NCBI GenBank assembly: GCA_004802725.1
Contig: SGPM01000261.1
Coordinates: 1-39,273 of the forward strand
Direction: 5' to 3'
DNA length: 39,273 nt
Source of the DNA: Antrodiella citrinella
Lineage: Eukaryota; Basidiomycota; Agaricomycetes; Polyporales; Steccherinaceae
Positions 6,902 to 36,452 of the stretch are shown piece after piece. The notes under the pieces were generated by a model that was not told where the DNA came from, did not search any database, and saw only the letters and a list, made by a program, of their open reading frames with translations. A program made the translations under genes and the position numbers. Every line of letters starts with the position of its first letter. Position 1 is the stretch's first letter.

Positions 6902-9637
6902 ATGACCACCACCACTACCCCAACCAACACGCTGACTTCCAATGATGTAGTCCAAAAACACAAAGACACTCCAATCACAGCTAAACCTCTCAATCGCGAC
7001 CAAGGAGATCCACACTATCGCATGCGTCTCGAAGGCGGGATGACCCAGAAGAAGGATCCAAAGGACTTGGCTTCGGCCGCACCTCCGACTCGCTTTGTAG
7101 AAGTCGCCGTGGAGGGGTTTACGGATGTTCTTGGCGCGAAAGGTCGACCCAGTCCTTCGTCTCGTCCGACGCTTGATCTGACGCACCTCGATGTCGGGAA
7201 CGGTGCCCCCAAAAACGAAAGGATGACTTACGCGGCTCTGGTGAGTGAGGTCTTGTCGTCTCTTCCACATTTTGACTCACTGGTTTTTGTGACTTCAACA
7301 GAGCGCGTACATCAACCACGCCCTTGGGCACGAGAATCTTGTCTGCAAAGACGTGTCGACTTGGCCTGCCTTGGATACGACTACTTCAGGCTCGCGTCGA
7401 GTCGACCTCAGTTGTTTCCTCATCCGTCTTGAGGAGATGTGGAAGGATCCAGAACTTGAGGTCAGTGCGGATCGCGAGGAACATGCCGCTCGTAATTGCG
7501 TGGTCCACTCTGTGATCGACGGTGAAGTCAAGGTCGACGAACCAGGCTTTGGATGCACTGAAACCGACCCCTTCCTCCCGTCTACCGCCGCCGCCGTCAA
7601 GACGCGAGGGCAGATGTGCGACTACGCCACCGAGGTCCAGCTACACCAGCACAGACTGTTCTTCTATTCGTTCTACGTCTACCGCCATACAGCTCGCCTC
7701 CTGCTCTGGGATCGCGTCGGCGCCATGGTCACGAAAATCATCGACCTCAAGACCGAACCCGAGAAGTTTTACGACTTCTTCTACCATCTCCGTTACGCGA
7801 GAGACGCTCAACTCGGCTTCGACACGACAGCCACCATGCTCAAAGACCCCACCAAGGACCGCGATGTGGCCGCTCTCACGACGGCTATCAATGCCTTGCC
7901 TTCCGAACGACGAACCAAGTCCTACGTTGAGAAGGCTTTCGAGGGAAAGAAGCCATACTACAGGTTGCAAGTTCCTGACAAGAGCGATCCGGAGAAGACA
8001 CACACCTTCCTTGTCCGCAATCTCTCCACCAACAGTGTCTCTCCTACTGGTCGTGCTACCAAAGGATTCATCGCCTTCGATCTGGAGACGAAGCAGTTCC
8101 GGTTCTTGAAGGACTCCTGGCGACCGGACTCGTCGTCGTACCATACGGAGATTGAGATCTACAATGTACTGCAGCCCCACAGTATTCCTGGCGTCGCCAC
8201 TCTCCTTTGTGGCGGAGATCTCAAGCAGGACGGTCAAGTTCAAAAAACGAGGACGCAGGAAGTGGCGACAGCATACCTGGCGCGTATACACACTCGGTTG
8301 GTGTTGAACGAGGTCGGCATACCACTCCAGGACTACCAGGATTCGAATGAACTGTGTACAGCTATTCTGTATGCTCTCAGGGGTGAGCATTCTTCTCGAC
8401 TGGCTTCTCTCATCCCGTACTGACATTTTCTGCGACAGCTCACGAGCTTGTGTGGAATCTGGAAATCCTGCACCGGGACATCAGTGACGGGAACATCGTG
8501 ATTTTCGAGAATCCTGTTACCGGGGCCATCTCAGGATTGCTGATCGACTGGGACCTTTGCAAGTACAAGAAAGATCTGGGTAACGGTAAACCTATTCAGA
8601 CAGATCGCTCTGTAAGTTTCTCAAGTCGAGCTGAGTTATCGTTCAGGGTACTGACTTTGTCGCAGGGCACCTGGAGATTCTTGTCTGCCACGCTGCTCAA
8701 TTATCCCATGAAGGGCAACGAGGTGGCCGACGACATCGAGTCTTTCTATCATGTGTTGATGCTCTTCGCCATGCGCTATCACAAGCACAAGAAGTCGCCG
8801 GATGAGCTCAAGGGAACTCTCCTGATGCTTGATACCTGCACCAACATCAACGGCTTCTCGGTGGGCAGCTCAGACAAATTGGAGTTCATGCGGGACGGCA
8901 CGATGTTCTGCAAATTGGATGACAGCAACGGCGCCTTTGCTGTACTCCTGCGATCTCTCGCAGATATATGCAAGGAACACTATGCGGCGCTCGACAAGGA
9001 TGACCTTACGAAATATTCGTTGAAAACCACCCCGCAAACCCTTTCCAATACCTCGGATGCTCCTCGACTCGCTCGCGATCTGACTGCTTTCAAAGACCTG
9101 TTCGAAGACGAAGGCGATGACCTCGAATTCGAGCCAAAGTCCCAGCCAGTCATCGCAGCTGCCGCTCCGAATCGCACACTGGACACGCACACGGCCTTCA
9201 GAAAAGCACTTCTCGGGGCACTCTTAGCGCAAGAGAAATGGGACTTCCAGGACAAACTGCCCAATGACCAGTTCAAAGCCATCGACTGGATTCCAGGGAA
9301 GACGAAGACCACAGGGGGCACGAAACGCTCCCAAGCGATGAGCCTTTTAGGAGCGCGACCGTCCGCCGCGAAGAAGCGTAAGACATTCGCTGGTCAATCA
9401 GCGTCTGGCGATGCTCAGACTGCACCGACGACCAGATCAAAGACAGCGGCGGCAAGGATGGCTGCTGCCCAACCGGTGGCAGGTCCGTCGACTGCAGAGG
9501 CACCGGTTGCTTCGACATCTGGTAGTCAGCGGTCAGGATCGACTGGGGGTGGTTCCACCCGCGGAAGAGGGTCAAAAGGCGGCAGAAGCACGGGCAGTGC
9601 GAGCAGTGCCAGTGGGAAGCGTAAGAGTCGTCGCTAA
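6902..9637 (+). CDS. FunK1-type fungal protein kinase, copy A
   Basis: Model: four exons 6902-7240, 7302-8382, 8439-8611 and 8666-9637 (854 aa), with introns of 61, 56 and 54 bp and consistent phases. The family is a fungal-specific branch of the protein-kinase fold, expanded in mushroom fungi, with unknown substrates. The catalytic loop HRDISDGN lies at residues 485-492 and the metal-binding equivalent of DFG is LIDWDLC (about 508-514), followed by GTWRFLS. The N-terminal third is the family's accessory region. The C-terminal 130 residues are Ser/Gly/Arg-rich and low-complexity, with basic clusters (AAKKRKT, GKRKSRR) that suggest a nuclear location. Its inverted partner is at 30650-33406. 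The start was chosen as the first ATG of the frame that splices cleanly. Confidence 0.88.
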
Positions 9638-10193
9638 TGTAGGGGACAAAGGATCTGGCAGTACGGACTTGTTGACCAAGTTCGACGACTTTCTCATATT
9701 ATCACGACACGCATTGCTCTCTTCATCACGTCTATGTTTGTATTTACTATCCTGCATGTACCAGTGTATTTTATTATCAGGAATCGATTATGGACTATGC
9801 ATCGCCTCAGGCGTTCAGAGGTTGCCATGAAATTTATGCCGTGGCTAGGAAGAAGCGGACAACCGTTTTACCTCGAGATTATTTCGTGCGTATCTGGGTA
9901 TGTTGAGATGTCGCAGGTCAATCAGTACCACGAACCGCCGTTAAATAATANGATTCCGAGTCATGTTAGATTACTAGNTCTCAGAGCATTCTCCATCCGC
10001 GCCGACTACGAGTTTCATATCGAAATGCCGACTGTTAAACGAGCTCGACAGCCCGGCTTTCCACAATGAAACCGCCATCGCCACCTAGAGTCAGCATGCG
10101 TAGTCTTTGGCCACACCCGTGACAGGTGACGAGTGTGTGACAGTTCGCGTTTTGGAATGCGTCGACCCTATGACACGAAAATTCAGTCCTCTC

Positions 10194-17103: not shown

Positions 17104-17155
17104 AGCATGCGTATTTCAAGTTGATCTAAATTATCGCTGAAGTTCAACCCAGGAA

Positions 17156-18892
17156 ATGCTGCCATCTCCTCAAATGCCAGTGGACGCGCAGAACGCACCG
17201 ATATTTGGTCTCCCGTCTGAACTGACCGAGAGTATCGTTGTGCTCCTCGCAGAGTATCCTGTGGCTATTGCAGCTTTCGCCCAGACTTGTCGGCATTTCC
17301 GATCTCTCGTATACGCAACCGCGGATGATCACCTTTGGCGCAATCTGTTCCTCGCACTGCACGACGATCCTCGCAGGGCGTACCGTGCAGTTCCACCTTC
17401 TCCGCTGGTAAAATGGGGAGAGGAGTATCAGAGGCGCGTGCGGGCCTACAATTACTTTAGGCGGGAGCAGATGCTGTATTCGCGTATCCCGGAGCATTAC
17501 GCTGACCCAAGTGCGGTGCTCGCGTTCGAAGCCCTACAGACCCTCCACTCTATGATAGACACCACAACACCTCATCCTCCGGCTGCAGGCGTCGCTCCTC
17601 AGCCCTGCGAAGAGTCTCTCATAAAAGCTCATTACCGCGCACCTAATTTCTCCCCACATCCCTTCGATCTCAAGGAGCCTACCAAGACCATGCTCATGTA
17701 CCGCAACATCGTCTACTATGGTATTCCGATTAACCTTGTTCGGGAGTTGCACCGCGAGACAAATCACGCAACGCCAGAACTTCACAAGCTCATCGCCTTC
17801 AGTGGGCTCCACACTTGCCGTACAGATGAGGAGCTGCCTGAGCCTAGTTTGACCGAATCCGTACCAATCACCCTCCTCGTAGGTCGTCCCAAAGTCACCA
17901 ACGTAAATTTGGTAGCCTTCAAGCAACATATGTTGTTCGAGGCAAAGAGGACCGTCTATAACATGGACTATCCGACCAAGGACCGTTTATACGGTCCATT
18001 CTGTCGTGTCAGTGGACGCCGATCGACCAATTCATGTGATCACTACCCTCACTGGAAACACCTCGCGGCAGTTCGCTTGGTCGTTCAGGAAGCGATGGTC
18101 GAGGAGTTTGCGAATGAGGGACCAGAGTTTCCTATGACAGAACCCATGGCCTTACGGAGTAGATGGGTCACTCTTCCGAGCATCCCAACACCTCTATCCG
18201 AGAACTCGCCGAGCAATCTCTCTTCAGAGAGAGACTGGGCAGGCGTAACCGGCCTTTGGAGGTATGTTCCTGTTCTTTCGTACCAAGATATATCAGTTCA
18301 ACTAACTCATTATGTAGACGACTTGTCACATGGTATGGATATGGGTCGTTGTTAGGTGAATTCACTTTAGATCGTCTGATCAGATTGAATACTAATGCTT
18401 TGCAATAATAGACCTCAACGACACCGATTTTGACGAGGTCGTGATGGGCAACGTTTTCGAGATCCGCACCTGCGTTCCCGTTCGCTTACGGGTGGTTGGC
18501 TACATCCACGACGACGGCTCACCAGCAGACTTCCCCACGATCAAAACCGAGGGTGAGTCGGGCGGCGAAGGGTGGCGGGAACGCGACGAGAATGATCCAA
18601 ACGACAATGGCGACCAGCGATCTACAGAGGGCAGAGTCTCTATGCTGTCAGATGGGTCCGTCCGGTGGACTACGGTGCGTCTCCTTGTTGCGCTACGTGA
18701 TATGTGACTCCGTTGAACGCATGTTGCCAGTGGTCGTATACGGATGCGAGCAAGAGGAAACGTCAATGGGTGTCCGAAGGGGTACAGATTGGCGGTATCG
18801 GATCCACAGCAGGGGCAATTGGGATGTGGACGGGTGCTTCACATGAGGATGGAGACCCGATCGGTGCGTGGTGGCAATGGAGAGTCGAATAA
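17156..18892 (+). CDS. F-box domain protein with conserved C-terminal domain
   Basis: Four exons, 17156-18261, 18318-18355 (38 bp), 18412-18674 and 18731-18892 (522 aa); phases agree. The F-box is at residues 17-65 (GLPSELTESIVVLL, then TCRHFRSLVYATADDHLWR), which would bind Skp1 in an SCF ubiquitin ligase. The C-terminal half holds a separate conserved region beginning at WAGVTGLWRRLVTWYGYG and ending GMWTGASHEDGDPIGAWW, a block I associate with basidiomycete F-box proteins and take to be the target-binding part. A second ATG at 17174 is possible. The gene faces the kinase-like gene across only 52 bp. Confidence 0.82.
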
Positions 18893-18996: not shown

Positions 18997-19865
18997 TCAT
19001 CGTCTGTACTTGGACAACGCTTCTTGTTTACACGCTCTCCCACAGAAATGGTCTGTCTCCCTTTGCGGGTTCGAAAGGCACATGACGCAGGGAGAGGCCA
19101 AGCCAGAATCGACTGCTTTCCTGAAACAACCATCGTCAATGAAAGCACAAGCCTGGCCGGAGATGTTCCTTACTCTCGGTGACTCTGGGAACAATATTCG
19201 CCGGTGCGCCCGTCCTTGCTAACATGTACCGGTTGCTTGCACTTCGGTAGCATGCACAAAACAGGAGATGGGCCGTCGTAGTCAGCCTCTTCTTCGTTAT
19301 CCTCGTGACCGTATTGTGGAATGTGAGCTGCTTTGGCCACTAGGATTCGGGCAAGAGGTGTTAGACATGGAAACGGCCAATCACATACTGGGTACCATAC
19401 CTGTCGTGATCAGGTCGCCCAGTGGGCCGAAATGATGCTTCTTGGGTTCTGCTGCCGCTGGAACTCGAATACGCAGAGGAGGCAACGATTGTGACGACGG
19501 CTTTGAGTGATGGGGCTGTTTGGCGCGCTCGGCGCAAGTCTTGCCACAGTATTCGTATTTGCCATACTGAGGTTTCTTGTGACAGTACTGCAATCATATT
19601 TGAATGCGACATACGACACGGAACAAAGGCTTTGTAAGTACCTTGCAAAGGTTCCCGGCTGCAATCGGCGGCACTGGGCGACTCTGAGACGGAGCCGCGG
19701 CAGTGCACGTCTTGCAGTAGCGAGCGCCGCCATGAGTGGATCTGGAGTAACAAGACTATTGTATGTTTAGTGATAGTGACGATCATGATCTAAGACGTCA
19801 CTTACTTGGCAAAGAGTGGGTGTTGGGATGTCAGACATGGCAGGATAGTATATCTCCGTGGGCAT
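18997..19865 (-). CDS. Multi-zinc-finger protein (CxxC...YCxxxC repeats)
   Basis: Five exons on the minus strand: 19865-19806, 19755-19642, 19587-19401, 19339-19174 and 19120-18997 (216 aa); phases agree. Four Cys clusters of one pattern are seen: LCQSC...RYCKTC, LCKYCHKKPQYGKYEYCGKTC split at an exon junction after LCK, LCMLPKCKQPVH...EYCSQSH, and PCVMCLSNPQ...HFCGRAC. These are short zinc-binding repeats. From memory, this array in mushroom fungi is normally followed in the same protein by a PARP-like ADP-ribosyltransferase domain. Here the reading frame stops (KQEALSKYRR, then TGA) where that domain would begin. The start could also be the ATG at 19838. The NADAR gene at 20100 ends 234 bp upstream on the same strand. 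Confidence 0.75.
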
Positions 19866-20099
19866 GTGTGATAATGACGAGCAGACGATCCACCACCGCT
19901 TAAGACAGATATATACTGCGAGACGTAGCAGTGCTGGCCAGCGCAGCAGCATGCTGATCAACACGAGGATTGTGTTCGGAGATGAGATACGCTGGAGTGC
20001 CCAGAGCGGGGAGGGTAGCCAGCCTCATGTTCAGCAAACTCGTGGCACACATGCGTGTATCCGCACAGCTCCAACCTCCGAGCACCCTGCAGGCCGTTG

Positions 20100-21476
20100 C
20101 TAGAGCGACAAGTCGCGCAACATATCCCGCACGTTTTGCAGGGCTTGTCCAAGCATGTTTCTTCCGCGATATTCAGGACCAGAAGTACAGCCCCAGTAGC
20201 GGTCTTCTCTCGAAATCTACGAATCGCACGATAGAGTACGTGAGCACGAGAAACGCATAGAGAAACAAACCCGGAAAGCCTTACATGATAGATATCCTTG
20301 CTACCTGTAGACAATAGCTTCCGTCTCAGGTGAGGATGTTGCGAGAACTTCAAGAGCAGGATCTCAGTCATCTGTACAAACAAACGTTAGTAATCGGGGA
20401 GATATGAACTTGCCGAGTTGACATACCTTTCGGAACCGCGGAGTACCCCACCAGTCTTCACGTGTCTCCCTTTCATAACGATGTGCTACCTCGATGGCGT
20501 CAAAAGGGTCATTGCCAGCTTTCCTGATGCGTTCTGCAATGTCAGGATAAGATGGTCGAAACTGAACGCAGAGTTAGAACAAGAAATCATATCTTCCAAT
20601 CAACGTACGGCTTACTTTGAACGACTGGTGTAAGTGGACGCATGTGGGATACCACTTGCCCTCGTACATGACCGGATGGGGAGAGAAAGTACTGAAGCCG
20701 TAATACGGTCCGGTCTTGTCGTACGTCCTAAACTCTATAGGAAGTTGGTCATCGTAGACCGGGATTGGAGCAGGCTCGATGTCGGGGTTCCAAGCCGGGT
20801 CTTGATTATCTTGGTCAGGATTTGTCGTCTTACCACGAAGAGACTGGTAGCTGCGTTTGAGGGCAGCAGCAGCTCTACAAAGGGAGCTTGATCGTCGGCG
20901 ACGCTTGCGTTCGCCTTCATCCCGATCACTGACGTTACTGTGCCTTCTTTCCAGAACCGACGTAAAATCACCGTGTCCAAGGGGCCAATTTGATGGCGGA
21001 GAATGTGCAGGTGTCGAACTGCGCGGAATATCTTTCGAGTGGTTCTGAGCCCTCTGAAATGCATCGTCAGTATTTCCCGGGTCCTTGGGTGTGACAACAA
21101 TAGGTGCACGTGAAGGATTGTCGACGACATTCACGTCTTCACGGGAAGTCTGTACGAGGTGGTACGCGTATCTCCGGGACGCGTCTGCATGCTTCGAGCG
21201 GTCGCGCTGGGAATCCGTATTCTCAGTATCTATTGCAGGCGAGACTGGAACCGCACGAGAGACTGATGTGGCGTTCGGATGAGGGGTAGGTGGTCGGTAG
21301 TCCGAAGCGCCAGAGGCTCGCCTAGAACTAGGACCGCTCGGAGTGGCGTGAAGGGGGTCCTCAAGTACATCGTACGTTTCCGAAGGAATGTAGTAGATAC
21401 TCCATCGCAAGAAGTCGATATGCTGAATCCACTCTGCGTCGGAATACCCGCAGAGACGCTGCACAGACCGGGCCAT
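20100..21476 (-). CDS. NADAR-domain protein, probable degenerate active site
   Basis: Four exons on the minus strand: 21476-20616, 20561-20427, 20371-20285 and 20216-20100 (399 aa); all junctions are in phase 0. Residues 1 to about 245 are mostly disordered, with a short N-terminal block (YSDAEWIQHIDFLRW) that resembles the start of the paralogue at 22048. The NADAR domain begins IEFRTYDKTGPYYGFSTFSP and continues through RPSYPDIAERIRKAG to YWGCTSGPEYRGRNMLGQAL. NADAR (YbiA-like) proteins are N-glycosidases acting on ADP-ribose-type or ribosylated substrates. The usual YPTSEH.FQ motif reads YPTCVHLHQ here (residues 276-284), so the conserved Ser-Glu is Cys-Val; FSNFS reads FSTFS. It may bind but not hydrolyse. 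An upstream ATG at 21542 is less likely by comparison with the paralogue. Confidence 0.85.
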
Positions 21477-22047
21477 GGCACTAAACGATAGGGGATGAGT
21501 GAGGATGTGATGAACAAGATGTGTGAGGATGCTTTTAAACATACTTCAAGAGACAAGGATGGACAGCGCCACAACGGAGGTGTGCGCGAGATGTCCTGTC
21601 ACAAGAACAAAGAAGGCCAGAACGGTGGCAAGACATTACTACATACCCTAATACAATAGCCTGTAAGCGCATCGATGTACTTGTCATAGCAGCAGTTTGC
21701 GCCTGACGACGAAATCACGTACCGAAGGTCAACGCGCAGGTCGTCCACAAAGAAAGAATCGGGCGACTCACGTGTCGAGCGTTGGAAGGCCATAACACGA
21801 AACGGTGAAATGTCGAAAACTTGTCAGTAGGGGCGCTGCAGCGGCACGCCAGTCCGATCCCCATGCATCGTACTTTGAGTCTGGACACTGCGAATCATAC
21901 TGGAACCGATCTGGGGATCGGAACTGGCGGCCTGTGGCGAATAGCATTTTAATTGTACAGCCTACTGAATATATACGTCCGATACCAATGATGCACTGCG
22001 ATAAAGTCCTATGAGCTTCAGATCATACAAAAATCAAACACAAGATT
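21477..22047. other. Intergenic region between the NADAR genes
   Basis: No independent gene is supported. On the minus strand there are plausible splice pairs (GTATGT near 21650 with an acceptor near 21598, and GTATGTTTAA near 21545 with CGTTTAG just before the start at 21476), so part of it may be a spliced 5' leader of the gene ending at 20100. A short frame starting with ATG at 21793 is possible but unproven. Confidence 0.4.
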
Positions 22048-23798
22048 CTACGCATGGGGATCCGCGAACGTCAGAGCACGTAACTCGTCTCGTAGCCTCA
22101 TCAGTGCCTTCCCAAGTTCATTGCGGCCTTGACCATTGGGTCCACTGCCCCAAAATGCGTCCTTGTCGGATGCCTGTGATAACACGTTAGCAACTGCATA
22201 TATATAAGGTGTTGAGATCGCCAACCTCTACTAATATGGCATCCCCTGTGCTAAGGAGCTCCGCCCGCAGACCCTCATGTTGTGAGAACTTCAACCTGAG
22301 AGTCTCGTACATCTACAAAAGGGGGTGAGGTCATGTACGTTGAGTGTATTAGGTTTCCTACCTTCTCGATGTTGACTTCGAACCAATCAGGCCGTACCTC
22401 ATCCGCGAGTCTGTGTGCTTCTGCCAATGCTGAGCTCGGGTATTTGGAACCTATCCTGATCCTCTCCGCGAGTTCTGGTCGATATTCATGGAACTGGAGG
22501 GAGCTTAGTGAGTCGTAGAGGAAACATGCATGACAGCTTACTTTGAATGATTGGAATAAATGTTCGCTGGTTGGGTATTCCTTTCCTTGATATACGACGG
22601 GGTGGGAAGAGAAGTTGGTGAAGCCATAGTGCGGGTCCTCTCTGTGGTAGAATCGGATCTGCGACAGTTGTCGACCACCTTCACGCGGCGAATTCCTCGG
22701 TAGGTCTCCGAGCTGTAAACCATTCCAGCTGACGGGCGTGCCGACCGTAGATAATCGCGAAGACGACTGTACGTGATGCTCAGCCTGAGGAGAGCCCTGG
22801 TACGGAAAATGGTGTCTATCGATGACCGACGCTGGCCGAGAGGCGCTGCGTCTGTCGGTTAGGCGTCGCTCCTGCGATTCCAGGATGGGAGCTGAATGGG
22901 GGCCATACGCAGACGGGGGACGGCTGCCATGCGGCGAGCGTGAAGACTGGGGTATCACTGGTACGTCAAAAGTAGAAGGAGGGCGATTCGAGAACTCCGC
23001 ATGCTGAGATATAACACGCGGGCTGTGCTCGTTAATGTGACCTGCATCGCTCAAATGGCGGTGTCGCGCGTAGGGAGTACTGCTAGGAATCACCGGTGTG
23101 ACAGCACTGTGCGGTTCGCGACCACGGGCACGAACGCCGTAATGAGCACGAGACTCATGTTCATCTGCGTCATCACCATATGGTATCTGCGAGGAGGAAG
23201 GTGTATTTGGATTACGCAGAATACCCCGTAAAGGCGATGCGGGAACTCTATGAGTGTCACCTCTGGTTGGGGGTGCATTGTACCCACTATCCCGACGCGA
23301 TCCATTGTTTCTACTGAGCACAGACGTGCCTCCGTCGTATGGTGAACGCCCTCCGCGACCCGAGCTCTCCGGTCCACCTGTGATATACCCGCTGTCATCG
23401 TCGTAGTCAACGGCGGCGTCTGGTGTTCGAGCATCGCCATCATAATAGCTGCGATATAAAGGACGAATATTCTCGATAGACACACTGGATCGCAAAGGGG
23501 TGGAGCGCCGACTGCTGTGGTCGCCACGGTAGAGCTCCTCGCGAGCGGGCCCTCCACTCGCGGTGGCGTAGCTATTTCTCCTGCTTCGACTCAATTCGTC
23601 ATCTGCTGCTGAAGTATTGACCACTTGTGGGATCCGGTCATCGTACTTTGCATACGAGGAGCTGCGACGACTGTGGAAGTCATCCGTTGATATGGTCAGA
23701 TGGGGAGGTCCGTAGATAGTGTTTTGAAGTTGATAGATACGACGTGACCATTGCTCAGCCGTATACGCCTCGGTCGGTGGGTAAAGTGTTGAGGCCAT
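22048..23798 (-). CDS. NADAR-domain protein with intact motif and long disordered N-terminus
   Basis: Four exons on the minus strand: 23798-22542, 22493-22362, 22312-22226 and 22173-22048 (533 aa), all joined in phase 0. Exon 3 is 87 bp, exactly as in the neighbouring NADAR gene, and the intron positions correspond, so the two arose by tandem duplication. Residues 1-45 form a short conserved start (YTAEQWSRRIYQLQ); about 45-375 are low-complexity, rich in Ser, Arg, Tyr and Asp. The NADAR domain starts IRFYHREDPHYGFTNFSSHP and has the canonical YPTSEHLFQSFK (residues 408-419, Glu412), RPDWFEVNIEKV, MYETLRLKFSQHEGLR and DAFWGSGPNGQGRNELGKAL. It is expected to be an active ADP-ribose N-glycosidase. 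The donor of intron 3 (GTTGGC) is weak. An ATG at 23900 is in frame but is not shared with the paralogue. Confidence 0.88.
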
Positions 23799-24468
23799 TT
23801 GGTGAGACGAGTAGCTGAAAGAGAGGCGCAATATGGATATGAAGAATGTGTCGAGGTGGTAGTATGCCGTCACAAACAGGTTTGCCAGTGCCACAGCCAA
23901 CTGACCCCGGGGTTAGGCGACGTGATATTCGCCTAGGAGATCTTTTTCATAGCTGAACGAGGGCAGCGTCCTGGACTCCTAGTCACAGCTGCTCTCTTGC
24001 AAGCAGGAAAACGGGTAGAGAGGAAGATCATGGTTTCACTGAACGAGGGCAACGGAAATGCAGCGAGAGTGATGGTGCCGATCGGGGTGCCGTAACCCTT
24101 ATTTTGCGATTTGGAACTTGAATTTAAAATTAGAAAATATTGACGCGCCCATGATGATATCAGATCATGACAGATGTTGCTTCGTCTCTACTTTCGATGG
24201 ATTTTCGGTCTTGCGTTATGCAACTTGAAAGCTTGAACAACTCCATGTGGCCGCTTTCCTGCAGGGAACTATGTGATGATCCGCTCATGTACAACAAGCT
24301 GTGTTCCAGCCCAAGGATTCCTTACTGCTGCAACGTGGATCTCATGTCTTATCCGACTTGCATACTGAGGCATGTTTTGGTCGCAAATTGCTCCTAATCT
24401 CTGTAGTGCCATACCCAAGAATCACGGTATATATATGGACAGTCTGCAGATATATCTATATCTAAGAC
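23799..24468. other. Shared upstream region between NADAR and ADP-ribosyltransferase genes
   Basis: The two genes diverge from this 670-bp stretch. It holds an imperfect direct repeat (CTGAACGAGGGCAGCG near 23954 and CTGAACGAGGGCAACG near 24038) that could be a factor-binding site. A frame at 24167-24397 (+) is Cys-rich (LCSSPRIPYCC) and could be a decayed zinc-finger exon of the downstream gene, but I cannot connect it with confidence. Confidence 0.4.
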
Positions 24469-25398
24469 ATGCACGAATACTACTCTGAACTTCCCCGTAA
24501 TCCTACTGGTCACCGGCGGGCCCGGTTGACCCCCGTACCAAGAGCGGATCCACGATTCGCAGAAGGTATGCCTGTTTTTGTCACATGGTCTATTTTGGAC
24601 GAGAACTCATTGATGTCTCCCCAGTTGAGGCACTATTTCGCAAAGGATGGCTACATCCTCATAAGCCGGTCCCGCATCTGCAAGCCGTGTACCGCGTTAT
24701 CTATTCACAAACACGTATCACGCCATTCCTTAAGTACAGGTTAGTGGTCCATCGACGTGCAACCTCTTGTTGAACTCATAAAAGTACTACGCAGATCATC
24801 CGTCATGTCGGCTGTGCCGTATTGGAGTCCATTCATTCGCACCGGTCTAGAGGCACTTTTGTTTCATGGGACCACAAGAGAATGTCTGGTAGCGGAAACC
24901 CCGGGCAAGGTATCCTTATGCGGCTCGCCGACGTGCTATTTATGCAACATACTAAGAGAATCTTACGATCTGAACAAGTGTGGTAAGTCTACGAAGGTGA
25001 AGCTGCGTCGTTGTCTCATGTATAATTGATAGGCCGCAAGAACAAATTCAGTCGATTTGGACGTGGTATCTACACCAGTTCATGCTCATCTAGTACGTAC
25101 GCCTTTTAAACTGACACTTTGAACTTGGTATACTCAGGGACTTGCAGAAGCGGATGACTACTCGTCGAATGTATCCAAGGACGCAAGGTCACGCGTCGTC
25201 TTGCTCAACCGTGTCACTCTGGGCAAGACGTACAAACTCCATCGCAACGCAGTGGATCTTGTAGGCCCACCCGCAGGATACCACTCAGTCGTGGGTGAAC
25301 CCGGAGAGGACCTCAACTATGACGAAACTGTCGTCTACAACAATGATGCTATTCGTCCTGGATATATCTTGGTCTACGGTGACTCTAGATCTACCTAG
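24469..25398 (+). CDS. PARP-like ADP-ribosyltransferase
   Basis: Five exons: 24469-24565, 24625-24739, 24795-24982, 25033-25092 and 25148-25398 (236 aa), with introns of 50-59 bp and consistent phases. The fold is recognised from its three blocks: LFHGTTREC with His95, FGRGIYTSS with Tyr147, and YDETVVYNNDAIRP with Glu213, the H-Y-E arrangement of PARP-type transferases, which move ADP-ribose from NAD+ to a target. Conserved family stretches also include GWLHPHKPVPHLQAVYRVI near the start and CGSPTCYLCNILRESYDL. At 236 aa it has only the catalytic part; relatives usually carry Cys-rich zinc fingers in front, and such an array is encoded separately at 18997-19865. Further upstream exons cannot be excluded. 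The target is unknown. Confidence 0.82.
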
Positions 25399-25487: not shown

Positions 25488-26652
25488 TCAGAAAGTCTTG
25501 GGGTCGTCCGAGTTAACGAACTCTGATGACCCGAACGTCCATCTCAACCATCTTTCCCTTGCTATTGCGAAATCTTTCAGCACGTCATCTTTCCGCTTAT
25601 CCTCATTCTGGACAAGCGGAGGCTGCGATACAGCCAATATCCGTCTCACTCCCGAGCTCGTCGTGGCATCCGAGGGAGATGGAGTGACCTCGGAGTTCGC
25701 AAGCGCTCTGCACTCTTGAACAAGAGGATACGTGCCATACAGTTGGCCCGCAAGATTGACGATGTAGTGTGGCTCAAAATCCACACTGACGCTGTGCAAC
25801 TTCTTGGGTAGAATGGACGATGTAGCGGACATGGAACTGCTGACAGTATTGGTTGCAATGGATTGCAAGTCTGCTAGGCCGCTGTATGCGCGCAGGAATC
25901 CTGTAAGATTTTGACCGTGGGATGGGCCAGACGGTAGGCCTCGGTTTTGATGCATCACTGCTGGCATATCACCGTCGTGCATATATCGAGATGACCTCAC
26001 TTCGAGGTGGGTAAGGCGGGGACACATATGAGCAAGGTGAGTCCCAAGATTCTGTGGCAACGCGGACAAATGCCTGAGGCACAGCTGCTTTAGGCGTGGA
26101 GCACGATGCGAGCACTGTGTAAATGACCGGCCGTCGAGAGAACCGCCGATAGCGAGTATCTCAAGAGAGGGTAACGGGATCGGAATGAGTGGGATGAAAG
26201 ATTTGGTCGTGTCCGGGAAATCAACATAAAGAACACGGAGGTTGTCGGACGAGATGATTTCGAGTATCTCCATAATCACAAGGAGGCGATCTGCGGAAGA
26301 ATATTAGACAAAGCGATCATACTCCAGTGACCTGAATGGAACACGAGCCTTCATCAACATTCGTATTGGTACATGATGGTATCTTTGACTTTTGCTCGCT
26401 GCTCAGAAATAACGAATGAACCCGCTGCGTCTGGTTCGGCCTCTTCTTCAGCATAGCCAGAAAAGCTTCCAGCCTCCTTTCGCCACAAACAGACGCAATC
26501 TGGATATCCACACCGGTCTCTGTACACAGTGTCCTGAACGGCTTGCACACCAATCCAAGAGCGCACCCAGTAGGACCGGCATCTGTACACGCATAGCTGA
26601 AGATGTCGAGCAAAAGCTCGTTGGGAGTCGTTTGAATGCTAGCGCGTGACAT
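25488..26652 (-). CDS. F-box protein, two blocks with unresolved junction
   Basis: The N-terminal frame (26652-26317) starts MSRASIQTTPNELLLDIF and continues YACTDAGPTGCALGLVCKPF and LFLSSEQK, an F-box-type start seen in many mushroom proteins. The second frame (to the stop at 25488) is leucine-rich: LRVLYVDFPDTT, PLPSLEILAIGGSLDG, APRLKQLCLRHLSALP, CPRLTHLEVRSS, as in the substrate-binding half. The order and spacing fit one gene with an intron near 26280-26330 ending ATTCTTCCGCAG, but no donor gives a clean phase, so either the intron uses a weak site or the gene carries a frameshift. It would act as an SCF adaptor with unknown target. Confidence 0.65.
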
Positions 26653-27446
26653 TGTCTAGGACACGTAGGGAGGGTTGCGCAGAGCAAGGGAAAACAAGAC
26701 AACAGTCTGTGAAGAGCTTTGAGAGTGGGTTTATGTGACTCGTCCAAGATTAGACTCACTGCGCTTCCGGGCGGCAGTAGCAGCATGTGAACATATGAAG
26801 ATGGACCGCCGTGCGAGGAATTCAGAGATGCACTGTAAGTCTGACAGACAGGGAAACTTGGCCGGAAGGAGTAGAATTGTGTATCTGGAGTACAGGGGAT
26901 GGTCGACAAGTAGGAAGCGAAGACAAGCAGACTCTAGCGATATGGATTTAAATATGGCCGAAATCACTAAAACGCACAGTCGAGAATATGTATCAGCCAT
27001 GAACGATATGTTTACGGTTATAATCACGCACCTTGCGCATTCCATATTCGTCTCTCACTGCGACAACTCAGGAAACGATGTATAGCCTACAAACCAATGC
27101 AAACCAATGCCAGCTCTGTGCTGCGAATATTTACGCCAGTCATCAGCTTCGCACCTTTGGTCCGAGCATGTACCCATTCCCCTCTTTTCTCTGGATACGC
27201 ACGCAGAGTCGTACACTTGGCAATGACAAAGTCGAAGTAGAGATCTCCGAGAACGATGCAAGTCCGAAAGGAAAGTCCCGAGTCGAGTCCGATATCGTTT
27301 TCACCGCTAGTAATCTGATAAGATTACCCACGCAAGATCACGACATTCCGCCATAATGTCCGCCGTTCATAAGAACAAACCCACCCCAAACCTACCTGGT
27401 CCCTCCTTCACATGTTTTCCACTCACATCATCGCCCGAGTACACTC
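26653..27446. other. Intergenic region
   Basis: Open frames here on both strands (for example 26735-27085) show no family features or splice support. It separates the divergent F-box and ATM1 genes and should hold both promoters. I see no strong TATA box. Confidence 0.5.
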
Positions 27447-30082
27447 ATGATGAATGTACTCTGTCGGGGGCAGCGGGCCATAACATCCAGAGCCTTCGTA
27501 CGACCAGCACCTCGCACCTCCTTCCGTTTCCGAACAGCGTCATTACGACCTCTGCCCCGACCACTCCCAGCGACTCACGTTCTGGCAGTCCGCTATTACC
27601 AACAGTCATCTCCAGAACCTCCCAAATCATCTACAGAAGCTGCTCCGAAACCTCCTGCTCAAACCAAACAGAGCCTAGGCGAGGAGGGGCACGCGAGTCA
27701 AAGAGAGCAGCGGAGTAAGGACTGGAATATTATCAAGACCCTTGCCAAGAATCTTTGGCCCAAGAATGACTGGTCAACGAGAAGCCGAATCATGTTTGGA
27801 GTTGGGCTTTTGGTAGCTGGGAAGGTACGTGTCTGTGGCTCGGTCAATTGTAGAGCGTGTCGCTGAAAGCTGCATGCTAGTTATTGAACGTGCAGGTCCC
27901 TTTGCTGTTCAAGCAAATTGTGGATGTTTTGAACATACCCCTTACATCTGATAACACTGTCTGGGTATTAGCAGGATCACTTATCCTTGGATGTAAGTAT
28001 TCACCTGCCTCGAATTCTTGCATCGACTCTAATGCGTCGCTCTTCGAGGTTACAGATGGTGCGGCGCGAGTGGGTGCAACTTTATCCGGGGAACTGCTCA
28101 ATGCCGTCTTTGCGAAGATCGGACAAAACGCTGTTCGCAAGGTGGCACGGGAAACATTTGAACATCTGCTGAATCTGGACTTGAGATTCCACTTGTCGCG
28201 TCAGACGGGCGGACTCACACGAGCAATAGACCGGGGGACAAAGTACGTCTTTCTTAGTCATAGGTATCTTTGGTCAATACTCATCTGGATAGAGGTATCA
28301 CTTTCATTTTGCAGGCAATTGCTCTCCGAATCGTTCCTACGGCTCTTGAGATATCACTTGTCTGCGGCATTCTGGTACGTCGTGTGCCGTATTTGGTCGG
28401 GATGGTCACTCACGATACCACTAGAGCTACAACTATGGCTGGAATTTTGCAGCGATCACTGTCGGTACGATGGCGGCTTATACTTGGTTTACGGTGCGCA
28501 CAACGGCTTGGAGGTCAGTGCGTCGTCGACTGGCGCAGGGATTTGGCATGAATATGTATTTTTCAGGACACGTTTCCGGCGTGAGGCAAACGTAGCTGAT
28601 AACAAGGCAGCAACAGTCGCGGTTGACTCCTTGATCAACTACGAAGCTGTAAAGGTGCGTGGTATTGTTGAGTTCACGTGTAAGCAATGCTCACTTCCAT
28701 TCCGTAGAACTTCAACAATGAACAGTATGAGGTCTCACAGTATGATAAGCACCTTGCGTCGTACGAGAAGTCTTCGTTGAAGATTGCGACCTCGCTCGCG
28801 TATCTCAACTCCGGACAGAACGTTATCTTCTCGTCTGCTTTGACTATGATGATGTTCCTTGCAGCGCAGGGTGTTGTGAATGGTACGTAACTATCTTCAA
28901 TTATGCCTTGCATTCTCTGAGTGATTTTAGGCACAATGACTGTTGGTGATCTCGTTATGATTAACCAGCTCGTATTCCAGTTGTCACTACCGCTCAACTT
29001 CTTGGGCACTATTTACCGGGAAATGAGGCAAAGTCTCCTGGATATGGAGGTGTTGTTCAATCTTACCACCCACAACCAACCGCCTCAAGTATGTACCATT
29101 GTTTCCTGAAATGACGGCTTGCACTAACGAAATGTTGCAGGACAAACCTGGAGCGAAGCCATTACAACTCAATGGAGGCTCAATTCGATTCGAGAACGTC
29201 AACTTCGGATACCACGTCGAACGACCGATTTTCCGAGACCTCTCGTTCACGATTCCAGCAGGGAAGAAAATCGCGTTCGTTGGCCCGTCAGGATGTGGCA
29301 AGTCGACGATCATGCGACTTCTCTACCGTTTCTACGATCCTTCTTCCGGCCGAATCTTCATCGACGATCAAGACATTTCCGAGCTACAACTGCAGAGCGT
29401 TCGCAAGATGATTGGTGTCGTACCACAAGACACACCGTTGTTCCACTCGGATGTGATGCATAATGTGAGGTATGGACGGTTAAATGCGACGGATGAGGAA
29501 GTTATGGAGGCCGCTCGGAAGGCGCACGTCCATGACTCGGTGATGAGATTGCAGGATGGGTACGCCACGAAGGTGGGCGAACGCGGCTTGATGGTTTCGG
29601 GAGGAGAGAAGCAGCGGCTCGCTATCGCTCGGGTGCTATTGAAGGATCCTCCCATTCTCTTTTTCGATGAAGCGGTACGTGTGGTAGATCATCTAACGTG
29701 TGACATGGTCGCTGACGTATAGCGCATACAGACATCTGCTCTTGACGCTCACACAGAGTCTGAGCTGATGAAGAATATCAACACCATCTTGCAAGAGAAA
29801 TCAAGGACAAGTATCTTCATCGCGCATCGCTTGCGCACTGTAGTCGAAGCTGGTACGATTATCGTATGATGTATCGCATTCGACTACTGACATGTATTCA
29901 TCGCACTTCTAGATCTGATCATCGTACTTCGTGACGGACAAGTCGTGGAGCAGGGAACTCACGAGGAGCTCATGCGTACGGGCGGCTTGTACTATAGCAT
30001 GTGGCAAGAGCAAGCTTCCGAGGCGTATATTGAGTACGACGCTATAGAGGAGAAGGAGGGGGACACTACACCTATGAAGTAG
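27447..30082 (+). CDS. ATM1: Mitochondrial iron-sulfur ABC transporter ATM1
   Basis: Eleven exons: 27447-27824, 27881-27992, 28056-28242, 28293-28374, 28425-28513, 28567-28654, 28708-28882, 28931-29088, 29141-29674, 29732-29852 and 29913-30082 (697 aa, the usual family length); all phases agree. The Arg/Ala/Ser-rich, acid-poor first 50 residues are a mitochondrial presequence. The half-transporter membrane domain follows ([34 protein letters not shown]). The ATPase domain has Walker [10 protein letters not shown] (471-479), signature VSGGEKQ, Walker B ILFFDEA (near 595-601) and the H-loop IAHRL. ATM1 exports a glutathione-linked sulfur compound from the matrix for cytosolic Fe-S assembly and iron sensing. 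It looks intact and is the only clear core gene in the window. The tandem ATGs at 27447 and 27450 are equivalent choices. Confidence 0.95.
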
Positions 30083-30469: not shown

Positions 30470-33400
30470 GAAAGCCTGAGGGAGATGCATAGTCCATAAC
30501 CGATTGCTAATAATAAAATATACTGGCACATGCAGGATAGTAAATACAAACATAGACGCGATGAAGAGAGCAATGCGTGTCGTGATAATATGAGAAAGTC
30601 GTCGAACTTGGTCAACAAGTCCGTACTGCCAGATCCTTTGTCCCCTACATTAGCGGCGACTCTTACGCTTCCCACTGGCACTGCTCGCACTGCCCGTGCT
30701 TCTGCCGCCTTTTGACCCTCTTCCGCGAGTGGAACCACCCCCAGTCGATCCTGACCGCTGACTACCAGATGTCGAAGCAACCGGTGCCTCTGCAGTCGAC
30801 GGACCTGCCACCGGTTGGGCAGCAGCCATCCTTGCCGCCGCTGTCTTTGATCTGGTCGTCGGTGCAGTCTGAGCATCGCCAGACGCTGATTGACCAGCTA
30901 ATGTCTTACGCTTCTTCGCGGCGGACGGTCGCGCTCCTAAAAGGCTCATCGCTTGGGAGCGTTTCGTGCCCCCTGTGGTCTTCGTCTTCCCTGGAATCCA
31001 GTCGATGGCTTTGAACTGGTCATTGGGCAGTTTGTCTTGGAAGTCCCATGTCACTTTTTTGTCAGCAAGTGCGTTGTAGAAAGTCTGCACGAATGCCGTG
31101 TGGTCGTCCAGTATGCGCTTTGATGGAGCAATTTCGGTCGGCTTGGGTATCGGCTTGAATCTGTTCTCAGCGTCACCAAGGGTGAGTCCCAGCTGCGCAA
31201 AAACATCTTCCTGAGGCGGCTGAATAGATGCGTTTGGAGCAACGACTGTGGTATGAGACGCGGTGGGGTTCACTGGCAAGGAATATTTCGCGAGGTCCTG
31301 GATATCTAGCGCCGCGTAATGTTCCTTGCAGATATCTGCCAGAGAACGCAGGAGTGAAGCGAATGCCCCGGTCTGATCAGACAGATCGCAGAACAAGATG
31401 CCGTCCCGCATATGTTTGAACTTCTTGTGACTTCCGACGGAGAATCCGTTGACGTTGTCGCAGGAATCATAGATGATGAGCGATGACTTGAGGTCTTCGG
31501 CACTGTCCTGGTGTCGGTGGTAGCGCATGGCAAAGAGCATCAACACATGATAGAACGACTCGATATCGTCGGCCACCTCGTTGCCCTTCATGGGATAATT
31601 GAGCAGTGTGGCAGACAAGAATCTCCAGGTGCCCTGCGACAAAAGTTAGCACCCAGATTATCAATACAGTTCGAGTTGAGAAGAGACTTACCGAGCGATC
31701 CGTCTGGATAGGTTTACCGTTACCCAGGTCTTTCTTGTACTTGCAAAGATCCCAGTCGATCAGCAATCCCGTGATTGACCCAGTAGCAGGATTCTCGTAA
31801 ATCACGATGTTCCCGTCGCTGATGTCGCGATGCAAGATACCAAGCTTCCAAACACGCTGGTGAGCTGTCGCAGAAAATGTCAGGTCGGAACGAGGAAGAT
31901 CTGTTGAGAGCCTGAGAATGCTCACCTGTGAGAGCAAACATCACCGCTGTGCACAGTTCCTTCGAGTACCAGTAGTCCTGGAGTGGTATGCCGACCTCGT
32001 TCAACACCAACCGAGTGTGTATACGCGCCAGGTATGCTGTCGCCACTTCCTGCGTCCTCGTTTTTTGAACTTGACCGTCCTGCTTGAGATCTCCGCCACA
32101 AAGGAGAGTGGCGACGCCAGGAATATTGTGGGGCTGCAGTACATTGTAGATCTCAATCTCCGTATGGTACGACGACGAGTCCGGTCGCCAGGAGTCCTTC
32201 AAGAACCGGAACTGCTTCGTCTCCAGATCGAAGGCGATGAATCCTTTGGTAGCACGACCAGTAGGAGAGACACTGTTGGTGGAGAGATTGCGGACAAGGA
32301 AGGTGTGTGTCTTCTCCGGATCGCTCTTGTCAGGAACCTGCAACTTGTAGTATGGCTTCTTTCCCTCGAAAGCCTTCTCAACGTAGGACTTGGTTCGTCG
32401 TTCGGAAGGCAAGGCATTGATAGCCGCCGTGAGAGCGGCCACATCGCGGTCCTTGGTGGGGTCTTTGAGCATGGTGGCTGTCGTGTCGAAGCCGAGCTGA
32501 GCGTCTCTCGCGTAACGGAGATGGTAGAAGAAGTCGTAAAACTTCTCGGGTTCGGTCTTGAGGTCGATGATTTTCGTGACCATGGCGCCGACGCGATCCC
32601 AGAGCAGGAGGCGAGCTGTATGGCGGTAGACGTAGAACGAATAGAAGAACAGTCTGTGCTGGTGTAGCTGGACCTCGGTGGCGTAGTCGCACATCTGCCC
32701 TCGCGTCTTGACGGCGGCGGCGGTAGACGGGAGGAAGGGGTCGGTTTCAGTGCATCCAAAGCCTGGTTCGTCGACCTTGACTTCACCGTCGATCACAGAG
32801 TGGACCACGCAATTACGAGCGGCATGTTCCTCGCGATCCGCANTGACCTCAAGTTCTGGATCCTTCCACATCTCCTCAAGACGGATGAGGAAACAACTGA
32901 GGTCGACTCGACGCGAGCCTGAAGTAGTCGTATCCAAGGCAGGCCAAGTCGACACGTCTTTGCAGACAAGATTCTCGTGCCCAAGGGCGTGGTTGATGTA
33001 CGCGCTCTGTTGAAGTCACAAAAACCAGTGAGTCAAAATGTGGAAGAGACGACAAGACNTCACTCACCAGAGCCCCGTAAGTCANCCTTTCGTTTTTGGG
33101 GGCACCGTTCCCGACATCGAGGTGCGTCAGATCAAGCGTCGGACGAGACGACGGACTGGGTCGACCTTTCGCGCCAAGAACATCCGTAAACCCCTCCACG
33201 GCGACTTCTACAAAGCGAGTCGGAGGTGCGGCCGAAGCCAAGTCCTTTGGAACCTTCTTCTGGGTCATCCCGCCTTCGAGACGCATGCGATAGTGTGGAN
33301 CTCCTTGGTCGCGGTTGAGAGGTTTAGCTGTGATTGGAGTGTCTTTGTGTTTTTGGACTACATCATTGGAAGTCAGCGTGTTGGTTGGGGTAGTGGTGGT

Positions 33401-33939
33401 GGTCATGATGGTGGGNGGAAGAGGAAAGGAGCATACCGTTGTGGCCAGAGAACCGCTACTTTTATTGACGCCTGGGTGGCCAGNAACCTGTCGGAGATCT
33501 GATTAAGCGATACAAAGGGACAATGGGTATGAAAAGAGATTCACCAGATCTTNCCGCAATTTGCAGTGAGGTGGCCACTCAATTTGCCCGAAACGGACAA
33601 TGCGTGTACGGTTTATTAGTAGAAAGCCGAGTGAGGCTGTAGAACAATAGCACCNGCCGTTACAATGAGACACTCAACACGCGTGCAGAAATGACACGCA
33701 CCCAACAGTTTCAGCTTTGCTCTGAAGACAAAGCGAGTGGCACAGTACAGCGTTGGCAGATTTAGTCCCCTAGAGTGTACCTTTGAAGCACACGCGTTTC
33801 CTTTTGTCNAACTCGGGCAACAATGTCGCGGGGATTGAGGATGAGATGGAGAGGAAGATGTGCCACTGATCAGAGCGACGGGGCCAGATCGCTTAACTAG
33901 GCGCCGAAACGCGACGCGTCGTGGTCACGTGTCTGCGTG
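30470..33939 (-). repeat. Inverted repeat arm B (FunK1 unit)
   Basis: Reverse-complement partner of 6369-9818. The outer boundary is sharp: homology stops at 33939-33940, where arm A passes into the gypsy LTR and arm B passes into unrelated sequence. Nine isolated N (from 32843 to 33810) lie in this arm and none in arm A, which points to uneven sequence quality or ambiguous read placement between the arms. Confidence 0.92.
30650..33406 (-). CDS. FunK1-type fungal protein kinase, copy B
   Basis: Four exons on the minus strand: 33406-33068, 33006-31926, 31864-31692 and 31633-30650 (858 aa), with introns of 61, 61 and 58 bp. Exons 1-3 match copy A in length and phase. The catalytic loop HRDISDGN, LIDWDLCKYKK and GTWRFLSATLL are intact. 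Residues encoded before about 31967 and after about 31050 are nearly identical to copy A, while the stretch between differs (for example HQRVWKLGILHRD against HELVWNLEILHRD) and holds a different linker (FAQLGLTLGDAENRFKPIP). The basic Ser/Gly tail is shared. Several codons contain N, so a few residues are undefined, but no stop is seen. It is likely functional. Confidence 0.88.
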
Positions 33940-34012
33940 TTTATTCGGCGCCTACGGTTTGTTCAGGCCTGTTCATCGATCGCAAGTTCAACGCGCAACG
34001 CTCCTAATACCA

Positions 34013-36303: not shown

Positions 36304-36452
36304 TTCTTCTTGCGATGTTTCGATTCGGGCTTTACGATGCGTCGGACCTCTTCGAGTCGATTCTACGATATGTCGGACCTCTCTGCTTCAATTCTACGAT
36401 ACGTCGGACCCTTTCTATTCGATTCTACGATGCGTCGGACTTCTTCTATTTC
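36174..36452 (+). repeat. 31-bp minisatellite with ~169-bp higher-order period
   Basis: The unit ATTCTACGATRCATCGGACC plus 11 variable bases starts at 36191, 36222, 36253, then (after an interruption) 36329, 36360, 36391 and 36422. The steps are exactly 31 bp inside each block. The two blocks and their tails (TCTTGCGA at 36308 and 36477) are offset by 169 bp, so a block was itself duplicated. Since 31 is not a multiple of 3, the array is read in all three frames in turn. Confidence 0.85.

What the first reader, a model, noticed from the sequence alone, without database searches (positions are those of the whole stretch)
18997..25398. A putative ADP-ribose writer/eraser gene cluster in a mushroom fungus
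Four adjacent genes point to ADP-ribose chemistry: a PARP-like transferase with an H-Y-E triad (His95, Tyr147, Glu213), two NADAR-domain proteins, and a zinc-finger protein of the type I recall fused to such transferases in related fungi. NADAR proteins remove ADP-ribose from nucleic acid in bacterial toxin-antitoxin and defence contexts. A eukaryotic cluster with both activities could be a modification/reversal switch, a self/non-self or anti-virus device, or a selfish pair. The gene identities are read from motifs; the functional link is inference.
Basis: partly seen in the sequence, partly recalled or inferred. Interest (0 to 1): 0.88.

Follow-up and report, generated by a model that had tools for sequence, protein, structure and literature searches.

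The report
Fungal ADP-ribose writer-eraser gene cluster
In a fungal genome, four neighbouring genes look like a kit for adding the small molecule ADP-ribose to a target and taking it off again, although one of the two 'eraser' proteins seems to have lost its cutting residues and the joint function is inferred, not shown.

Summary
Between 18997 and 25398 lie four adjacent multi-exon genes: a Cys-rich zinc-finger protein (-), two NADAR proteins (-) and a PARP-type transferase (+). Pfam assigns PARP (2.6e-15) and NADAR (7.6e-26, 3.9e-35); the finger protein has no Pfam match. My model puts the triad at His95, Tyr147, Glu213, as stated.

Three things change the reading. (1) Only NADAR2 is a plausible eraser: NADAR1 has Val and His at the two catalytic glutamate positions. 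Of seven NADAR domains found in this genome, three lack both glutamates; one lies between two intact domains in a single gene. (2) On contig C462, two gene models fuse such fingers to such a transferase, so the separate finger gene is a credible partner. (3) Linkage is unlikely by random placement (0.33% for PARP beside NADAR; post hoc) but occurs at one of four PARP loci.

Best reading: writer, targeting subunit, eraser, and a degenerate NADAR as binder or regulator. Flavin damage control and chance neighbourhood are live rivals. Other fungi could not be searched, so conservation is untested. The nearest analogues, DarT1-NADAR and YarT-YbiA, are bacterial; it is not a DarT1-NADAR, and YarT was not compared.

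The parts
18997..19838 (-). ZNF: Cys-rich zinc-finger protein gene, about 203 aa, exons 19838-19806, 19755-19642, 19587-19401, 19327-19174, 19120-18997 (third acceptor uncertain among 19340/19331/19328, or donor 19388)
   Evidence: models; no Pfam family; fingers match a profile of the finger units of two finger-PARP models on contig C462, 20.7 bits, 0 of 846 Cys/His-fixed shuffles as high
20100..21476 (-). NADAR1: N-terminal 245 aa with a basic run RKRRRR at residue 190, then a NADAR domain with V and H at the two catalytic glutamate positions; exons 21476-20616, 20561-20427, 20371-20285, 20216-20100
   Evidence: 7.6e-26; residue table; basic run
22048..23798 (-). NADAR2: N-terminal 375 aa rich in S, R and P, then a NADAR domain with both catalytic glutamates (TSEH, LVE), YbiA-type; exons 23798-22542, 22493-22362, 22312-22226, 22173-22048
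   Evidence: 3.9e-35; YbiA 2b3w, E 2.1e-27
23799..24468 (.). 670-base divergent intergenic region between the NADAR2 and PARP starts (possible shared promoter; inference only)
   Evidence: gene models; length
24469..25398 (+). PARP: PARP-type ADP-ribosyltransferase, 236 aa, H95-Y147-E213, with C101, C113, C118 and C121 invariant in four paralogs; exons 24469-24565, 24625-24739, 24795-24982, 25033-25092, 25148-25398
   Evidence: 2.6e-15; tankyrase-1

Best explanation
A small fungal gene cluster for reversible ADP-ribosylation. The PARP-type transferase (writer) uses NAD+ to put ADP-ribose on a target; the separate zinc-finger protein is its targeting or adaptor subunit, the counterpart of the finger part fused to sister transferases in the same genome; NADAR2 (eraser), a YbiA-class NADAR with both catalytic glutamates, removes the mark, most plausibly from guanine bases of DNA or RNA because that is the linkage studied NADARs hydrolyse; NADAR1, a diverged NADAR without those glutamates but with other ligand-site residues kept, acts as a non-cleaving ADP-ribose binder or regulator. 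Shown here: gene models, domain assignments, triad, absence of the glutamates, finger-PARP models elsewhere in the genome, linkage at this locus. Inferred: every activity, the nucleic-acid target, any physical partnership, the role of NADAR1.
For: Domains; triad, kept in C152 and, as far as modelled, in the two C462 genes. Finger-PARP models on C462: in gene B the frame stays open from the fourth finger for 22 residues and one low-scoring predicted intron joins it to the first conserved transferase motif; in gene A two predicted introns do so. Finger homology above shuffles. NADAR2 keeps E43, K50, W89, E125, D130 and W133 of the Phytophthora numbering, residues that contact ADP-ribose in the solved complex (PMC11543638, section 12). 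[quoted passage not shown] Random placement of 4 PARP and 4 NADAR loci puts two centres within 3 kb in 0.33% of trials; with 2 free finger loci assumed, all three kinds within 6.5 kb in 4 of 400000; both post hoc. Another NADAR here (C70) fits the riboflavin N-glycosidase model better (131.1 bits against 102.7 and 74.3), which leaves the window copies free for another job, but see evidence against.
Against: Linkage at 1 of 4 PARP loci and 1 of 4 NADAR loci of the one genome searched. NADAR2 and, narrowly, NADAR1 pass NCBIfam's cut-off for the riboflavin-intermediate N-glycosidase (domain pieces given). The C70 argument cuts both ways: C70 groups with the Phytophthora guanine-ADP-ribose hydrolase (support 99), so C70 could be the guanine eraser and the YbiA-like window copies the flavin-type ones. 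E. coli C7 NADAR was inactive on RNA modified by human PARP10 (PMC13036486, passages), so a PARP-type writer need not make a NADAR substrate. In DarT1-linked NADARs the catalytic carboxylate comes from a neighbouring position (PMC11543638), and phage NADARs with His there are active (PMC11125620, passages), so inactivity of NADAR1 is likely but not proved. NADAR1's long branch also fits decay. No conservation, expression or activity data.
Confidence: 0.4

Rival explanations
1. The NADARs are flavin-pathway damage-control enzymes (riboflavin-intermediate N-glycosidases) or diverged copies of them; the PARP and finger genes are unrelated to them in function and merely neighbours.
For: NADAR2 102.7 bits and NADAR1 74.3 bits against TIGR02464 (cut-off 73.7); NADAR2 is closer to YbiA (42% identity) than to the Phytophthora guanine-ADP-ribose hydrolase (33%), while C70 groups with the latter (support 99). 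PMC11543638 (passages) speaks of flavin NADARs in plants and fungi.
Against: C70 has the highest TIGR02464 score in this genome (131.1 bits); NADAR1 lacks the glutamates; adjacency to a PARP is unlikely under random placement. YbiA itself hydrolyses guanosine-ADP-ribose in vitro (PMC11125620 and PMC11833690, passages), so the label does not exclude an eraser role.
Confidence: 0.22
2. Chance neighbourhood in a repeat-rich region: the finger and PARP genes may be remnants of one fused gene, and a NADAR pair happens to lie between them.
For: Flanks hold an inverted repeat of about 3.4 kb, 98% identical over most of its length, a retrotransposon polyprotein and a fungal kinase gene; linkage at one locus only.
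Against: Random placement gives PARP beside NADAR in 0.33% of trials and all three kinds together in 4 of 400000, though chosen after seeing the data. The four gene models have intact frames.
Confidence: 0.25
3. A toxin-antitoxin-like or selfish pair, or an anti-virus device: the transferase harms the cell or an invader and NADAR2 protects.
For: Analogy only: DarT1-NADAR and YarT-YbiA in bacteria pair a transferase with a NADAR antitoxin (PMC11543638, PMC11125620, passages); [quoted passage not shown]
Against: The other three PARP loci, among them two finger-PARP models in tandem on C462, show no NADAR match on their contigs, so this enzyme type does not seem to need a linked NADAR. No toxicity, drive or induction data. 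The transferase is PARP-type, not DarT-type.
Confidence: 0.08

Closest known systems
DarT1-NADAR (DarTG1) toxin-antitoxin system of bacteria (PMC11543638)
   Same: A transferase gene next to a NADAR gene; NADAR fold, with the first catalytic glutamate and the lysine kept in NADAR2.
   Different: The transferase is PARP-type with H-Y-E; NADAR2 carries the YbiA-class glutamate rather than the aspartate of DarT-linked NADARs; genes with introns on two strands; an extra degenerate NADAR and a finger gene.
YarT-YbiA pair of myxobacteria (PMC11125620)
   Same: A transferase with an H-Y-E motif paired with a YbiA-class NADAR; the nearest published arrangement that I saw.
   Different: The paper likens YarT to bacterial Tre23-type toxins; here the transferase aligns with tankyrases and other PARPs. 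The two sequences were not compared.
Finger-PARP models of the same genome (contig C462, two genes)
   Same: Fingers of the same kind and transferase of the same family (37% and 43% identity to the window PARP over the parts compared).
   Different: One predicted polypeptide instead of two genes, and no NADAR match on that contig.
E. coli YbiA / riboflavin-intermediate N-glycosidase (TIGR02464, 2b3w)
   Same: NADAR2 is 42% identical in the aligned part and passes the family cut-off.
   Different: Long low-complexity N-terminus, gene pairing, and a neighbouring paralog without the glutamates.
Fungal PARPs of Clades 1 and 6 (PMC2964712)
   Same: PARP catalytic domain in a fungus.
   Different: Clade 6 proteins of that study lack the final glutamate, present here; Pfam shows no second domain above cut-off in this 236-aa protein. 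Clade not assigned by a tree.

Membership tests
PARP / ARTD family (PF00644) | Profile match above the curated cut-off | tested here: met
   56.9 bits against 26.7
PARP / ARTD family (PF00644) | H-Y-E catalytic triad | tested here: met
   H95, Y147, E213; invariant in the four-paralog alignment; Tyr and Glu aligned to tankyrase-1
PARP / ARTD family (PF00644) | ADP-ribosyl transfer activity | not testable with these tools
   needs protein
NADAR superfamily (PF08719) | Profile match above the curated cut-off, both proteins | tested here: met
   91.7 and 122 bits against 35.1
Catalytically competent NADAR (YbiA class) | Both catalytic glutamates (E43, E125 in the Phytophthora enzyme) in NADAR2 | tested here: met
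Catalytically competent NADAR (YbiA class) | Both catalytic glutamates in NADAR1 | tested here: not met
   V and H at the two positions
DarTG1 (DarT1-NADAR) | DarT-type transferase | tested here: not met
   the transferase matches the PARP model and, in the PDB, tankyrases and other PARPs in the 60 best of 71 matches shown
DarTG1 (DarT1-NADAR) | Aspartate-class (BC4488) NADAR | tested here: not met
   NADAR2 has Glu, NADAR1 has His at the aligned position
YarT-YbiA | YarT-like transferase next to a YbiA | not tested
   YarT sequence not compared; only passages of PMC11125620 seen
Riboflavin-intermediate N-glycosidase (TIGR02464) | Score above NCBIfam cut-off 73.7 | tested here: met
   NADAR2 102.7, NADAR1 74.3, domain pieces given; for comparison C70 131.1
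Riboflavin-intermediate N-glycosidase (TIGR02464) | Activity on flavin intermediates | not testable with these tools
   needs protein
NADAR anti-phage protein DS-32 (NF053876) | Score above NCBIfam cut-off 240 | tested here: not met
   73.8 (NADAR2) and 59.9 bits (NADAR1)
Finger-PARP module of this genome | Finger part homologous to the fused fingers beyond Cys/His spacing | tested here: met
   0 of 846 Cys/His-fixed shuffles reach 20.7 bits; pairwise 0 of 1000 (gene A) and 1 of 1000 (gene B) such shuffles
Conserved gene cluster | Same neighbourhood in other fungal genomes | not testable with these tools

The most novel reading that the evidence does not exclude
A eukaryotic reversible guanine-ADP-ribosylation system: a fungal PARP-type enzyme aimed at nucleic acid by a detachable zinc-finger subunit, an active NADAR eraser, and catalytically dead NADARs, arisen perhaps more than once in this genome, that serve as readers of the mark. 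It would supply the missing endogenous writer for eukaryotic NADARs and a new class of ADP-ribose reader.
Probability: 0.15. Interest if true: 0.88.

Novelty: new variant of a known kind. Interest (0 to 1): 0.58.

Why it matters
The physiological role of NADARs found across eukaryotes is called unclear in a 2024 study (PMC11125620, passage). A locus where an H-Y-E PARP, a finger module of the kind fused to its sisters, and an intact NADAR sit together gives a named candidate writer, eraser and possible reader to test. NADARs that lack the two catalytic glutamates, with an intact-dead-intact series inside one gene model, hint that NADARs may also work as ADP-ribose binding modules. If only flavin repair and chance neighbourhood are at work, most of this interest falls away.

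Tried and rejected
Survey in other fungi: the search for homologous proteins answered that the shared database is switched off; no other query was sent to it. Scans of GTDB genomes and IMG/VR contigs with the four-transferase alignment confirmed no relative (0 of 134 pattern matches; 0 of 39). The GTDB set is bacterial and archaeal and the other is viral, so this says only that no prokaryotic or viral relative was caught at that sensitivity.

Structure prediction was not used: the tool's description accepts only proteins that the DNA gives letter for letter, and these proteins are spliced.

NADAR1 and NADAR2 as sister tandem duplicates: not resolved. Domain identity is 49%, NADAR2 is 51-55% identical to the C20 domains, and tree supports among these domains are 34-56; similarity of the first 45 residues is weak (374 of 20000 shuffles as high).

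Pairwise finger comparison gave mixed strength (gene A 0 of 1000 shuffles of either kind, gene B 1 of 1000 of either kind); the profile test is clearer. Two of its eight rows (the second unit of each C462 gene) were joined by hand across introns that I did not fully model.

Hypergeometric figures for loss of both glutamates (four active references: 0.0486, 0.0135, 0.0742; six references: 0.0286, 0.0095, 0.0571) are descriptive only, because the three domains were picked for lacking the glutamates.

Erasers elsewhere: macrodomain family one locus, C155; ARH none, controls rang in 5 of 14; PARG none, but its controls were silent too, so absence is not shown. The search with PF00644 missed the window's own gene because exons are searched singly; gene counts are lower bounds.

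Mapping of R79 of the Phytophthora enzyme is uncertain: the alignment puts His there with Arg next to it in both window NADARs.

Odds: on re-checking, C70's grouping with the Phytophthora enzyme makes the C70 argument two-edged; for that I moved the best reading from 0.42 to 0.40 and the flavin rival from 0.20 to 0.22.
Full report
What is there. The window is part of a 30-Mb assembly in 602 contigs. Reading both strands and enumerating splice sites gave four gene models with intact frames: ZNF (-, 19838..18997), NADAR1 (-, 21476..20100), NADAR2 (-, 23798..22048) and PARP (+, 24469..25398). The outer ends coincide with the finding's coordinates. Gaps between the coding parts are 261, 571 and 670 bases; I did not compare them with gaps elsewhere in the genome. 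Four ZNF models with slightly different third introns are possible; the difference lies between fingers. No transcript was available.

Domains. Pfam finds PARP in the transferase (2.6e-15; best stretch 113-204) and NADAR in two proteins (7.6e-26 and 3.9e-35), all above curated cut-offs, and nothing in the finger protein; two further matches were below cut-off. In the PDB the transferase matches tankyrase-1 best (E 4.6e-7, residues 141-230), with tyrosine and glutamate in register. Three other genes at two loci encode transferases of the same family: two on contig C462 and one on C152. In the alignment of the four, H95, Y147, E213 and also C101, C113, C118 and C121 are invariant. A further PARP locus, C259, was found with the Pfam family and not studied.

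The zinc-finger link. In this genome both C462 genes have four finger-like units ahead of the transferase on the same strand. In gene B the frame stays open for 22 residues beyond the fourth unit and one predicted intron of low score joins it to the first conserved transferase motif; in gene A two predicted introns do so. The fusion is therefore a gene-model inference. A profile of the eight C462 units, two of them joined by hand, scores the window's finger protein at 20.7 bits; no scored shuffle reaches this, 0 of 846 with Cys and His fixed and 0 of 833 without (1000 of each were made). Pairwise, 0 of 1000 Cys/His-fixed shuffles reach the score for gene A and 1 of 1000 for gene B. So the window's finger protein looks like the same kind of module, here encoded apart. 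By the fusion argument it is a likely partner of the transferase; that is inference.

The NADARs differ. Aligned with E. coli YbiA and the Phytophthora NADAR (8bau), NADAR2 keeps both glutamates that hold the distal ribose (E43 and E125 in the paper's numbering), while NADAR1 has V and H. I mapped numbers by a constant offset of two between the 8bau chain and the paper; the residue letters at all eleven positions then agree with those named in PMC11543638 (section 12; row Pnic_8bau). In that paper, substitutions at either position in E. coli C7 NADAR abolished rescue from DarT1 in cells; in vitro, E88A had a minor effect, E88Q was inactive, and the D171 changes lost efficient activity. NADAR1 keeps K50, W89, D130 and W133. 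Two cautions: in C7 NADAR the catalytic carboxylate comes from a position two residues from the aligned one, and phage NADARs with a histidine there are active (PMC11125620, passages). NADAR1 is called probably dead on both changes together.

The genome's other NADARs. The family search gave 11 matches at four loci: the window, C20, C268 and C70. C20 encodes what reads as one gene with three NADAR domains joined by open frame, intact, degenerate (Q and F) and intact in order. C268 is degenerate (Y and F). C70 is intact; it has the highest score against the riboflavin N-glycosidase model, 131.1 bits, against 102.7 for NADAR2, 92.7, 84.6 and 84.1 for the C20 domains, 74.3 for NADAR1 and 66.0 for C268 (cut-off 73.7). 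Yet C70 also groups with the Phytophthora guanine-ADP-ribose hydrolase (support 99), so it cannot be taken simply as the flavin housekeeper. In all, 3 of the 7 domains found lack both glutamates, with a different pair of replacements each time (V/H, Q/F, Y/F), which suggests separate losses; the tree is too weak to show it (supports 34-56). NADAR1 and C268 have the longest branches among the six YbiA-like domains of this genome, which also fits relaxed constraint.

Is the linkage more than chance? If 4 PARP and 4 NADAR loci are dropped at random on 30 Mb, two centres lie within 3 kb in 0.33% of trials and within 10 kb in 1.07%. With two free finger loci assumed, all three kinds within 6.5 kb occurred in 4 of 400000 trials. 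These figures were chosen after seeing the locus, gene counts are lower bounds, and genes are not placed at random. Against linkage as a rule: the other three PARP loci and the other three NADAR loci have no partner of the other kind on their contigs, though C70 lies only about 4 kb from a contig end. Ten of the 58 frames of 130 residues or more near the other loci were scanned with Pfam; none of the ten is an ADP-ribose gene. Linkage in other species, the decisive test, could not be run.

Surroundings. The gene at 17141 passes the Pfam F-box-like cut-off (26.0 against 24.3); the one at 25488-26655 gave no match for its main frame and is called F-box/leucine-rich by eye. Further out are a retrotransposon polyprotein (reverse transcriptase, RNase H, integrase zinc-binding domains), a fungal-type kinase gene present as an inverted copy on both sides, and an ABC transporter.

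How it most likely works. The transferase would use NAD+ to mark a target chosen with the finger protein; NADAR2 would remove the mark; NADAR1 would bind but not cleave. Guanine bases are the favoured target because the NADARs tested cleave guanine-linked ADP-ribose on DNA and RNA and not phosphate-linked forms (PMC11543638, PMC11833690; passages). A caution is that RNA modified on uracil by PARP10 was not a NADAR substrate (PMC13036486, passages). I put this reading at 0.40, chance neighbourhood at 0.25, flavin damage control at 0.22 and a selfish or defence pair at 0.08.

Comparison and novelty. DarT1-NADAR shares the pairing but not the transferase type or NADAR class; YarT-YbiA is nearer in pairing an H-Y-E enzyme with a YbiA-class NADAR (PMC11125620, passages). 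Of two surveys of eukaryotic PARPs seen in passages, PMC2964712 reports Clade 1 and 6 PARPs in fungi, Clade 6 lacking the final glutamate; PMC4245714 does not hold the word NADAR. The listings of seven library searches showed no paper on a fungal transferase-NADAR cluster: 20 of 42 listed; 15 of 586; 15 of 3,136; none found; 4 of 4; 10 of 13; 7 of 7. Most listed papers were seen as titles and abstract openings only. The Rhizoctonia paper's eight hits are an author's surname. Subscription literature and preprints are not covered. The earlier bioinformatic definition of NADAR (reference 30 of PMC11543638) was not read and may mention fungal contexts.

Verdict.

Noticed in passing
window 6368-9806 and 30481-33940: A fungal-type protein kinase gene (PF17667) occurs as an inverted pair, 98% identical over most of about 3.4 kb with parts at 84-85%, on both sides of the cluster; partial copies at the starts of contigs C374 and C514 and weaker matches on C600.
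   Followed up: partly
window 381-5500: Retrotransposon polyprotein, Ty3/gypsy-type by eye: reverse transcriptase, RNase H and integrase zinc-binding domains.
   Followed up: no
window 17141-18890 and 25488-26655: An F-box-like gene flanks the cluster on one side (Pfam above cut-off) and one that looks F-box/leucine-rich by eye on the other; an F-box-like frame lies near the C268 NADAR gene and a sub-cut-off one near C20. Probably a large family and chance; not tested.
   Followed up: no
L031 (contig C20:16001-26000), about 7870-4628 on the minus strand: One gene model with three NADAR domains, intact, degenerate, intact at the catalytic glutamates.
   Followed up: partly
L033 (contig C268:86001-96000), 6809-5054 on the minus strand: A NADAR protein with a long N-terminus and Y and F in place of both catalytic glutamates.
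   Followed up: partly
L026 and L027 (contig C462:84001-104000): Two tandem finger-PARP gene models with a BTB-domain frame near them; no NADAR match on the contig.
   Followed up: partly
window 36173-36502: Two direct copies of 161 bases, 79% identical, start to start 169 bases.
   Followed up: no
window 27357-29722: ABC transporter gene; likeness to mitochondrial ATM1 is recalled, only the ABC domain was tested.
   Followed up: no
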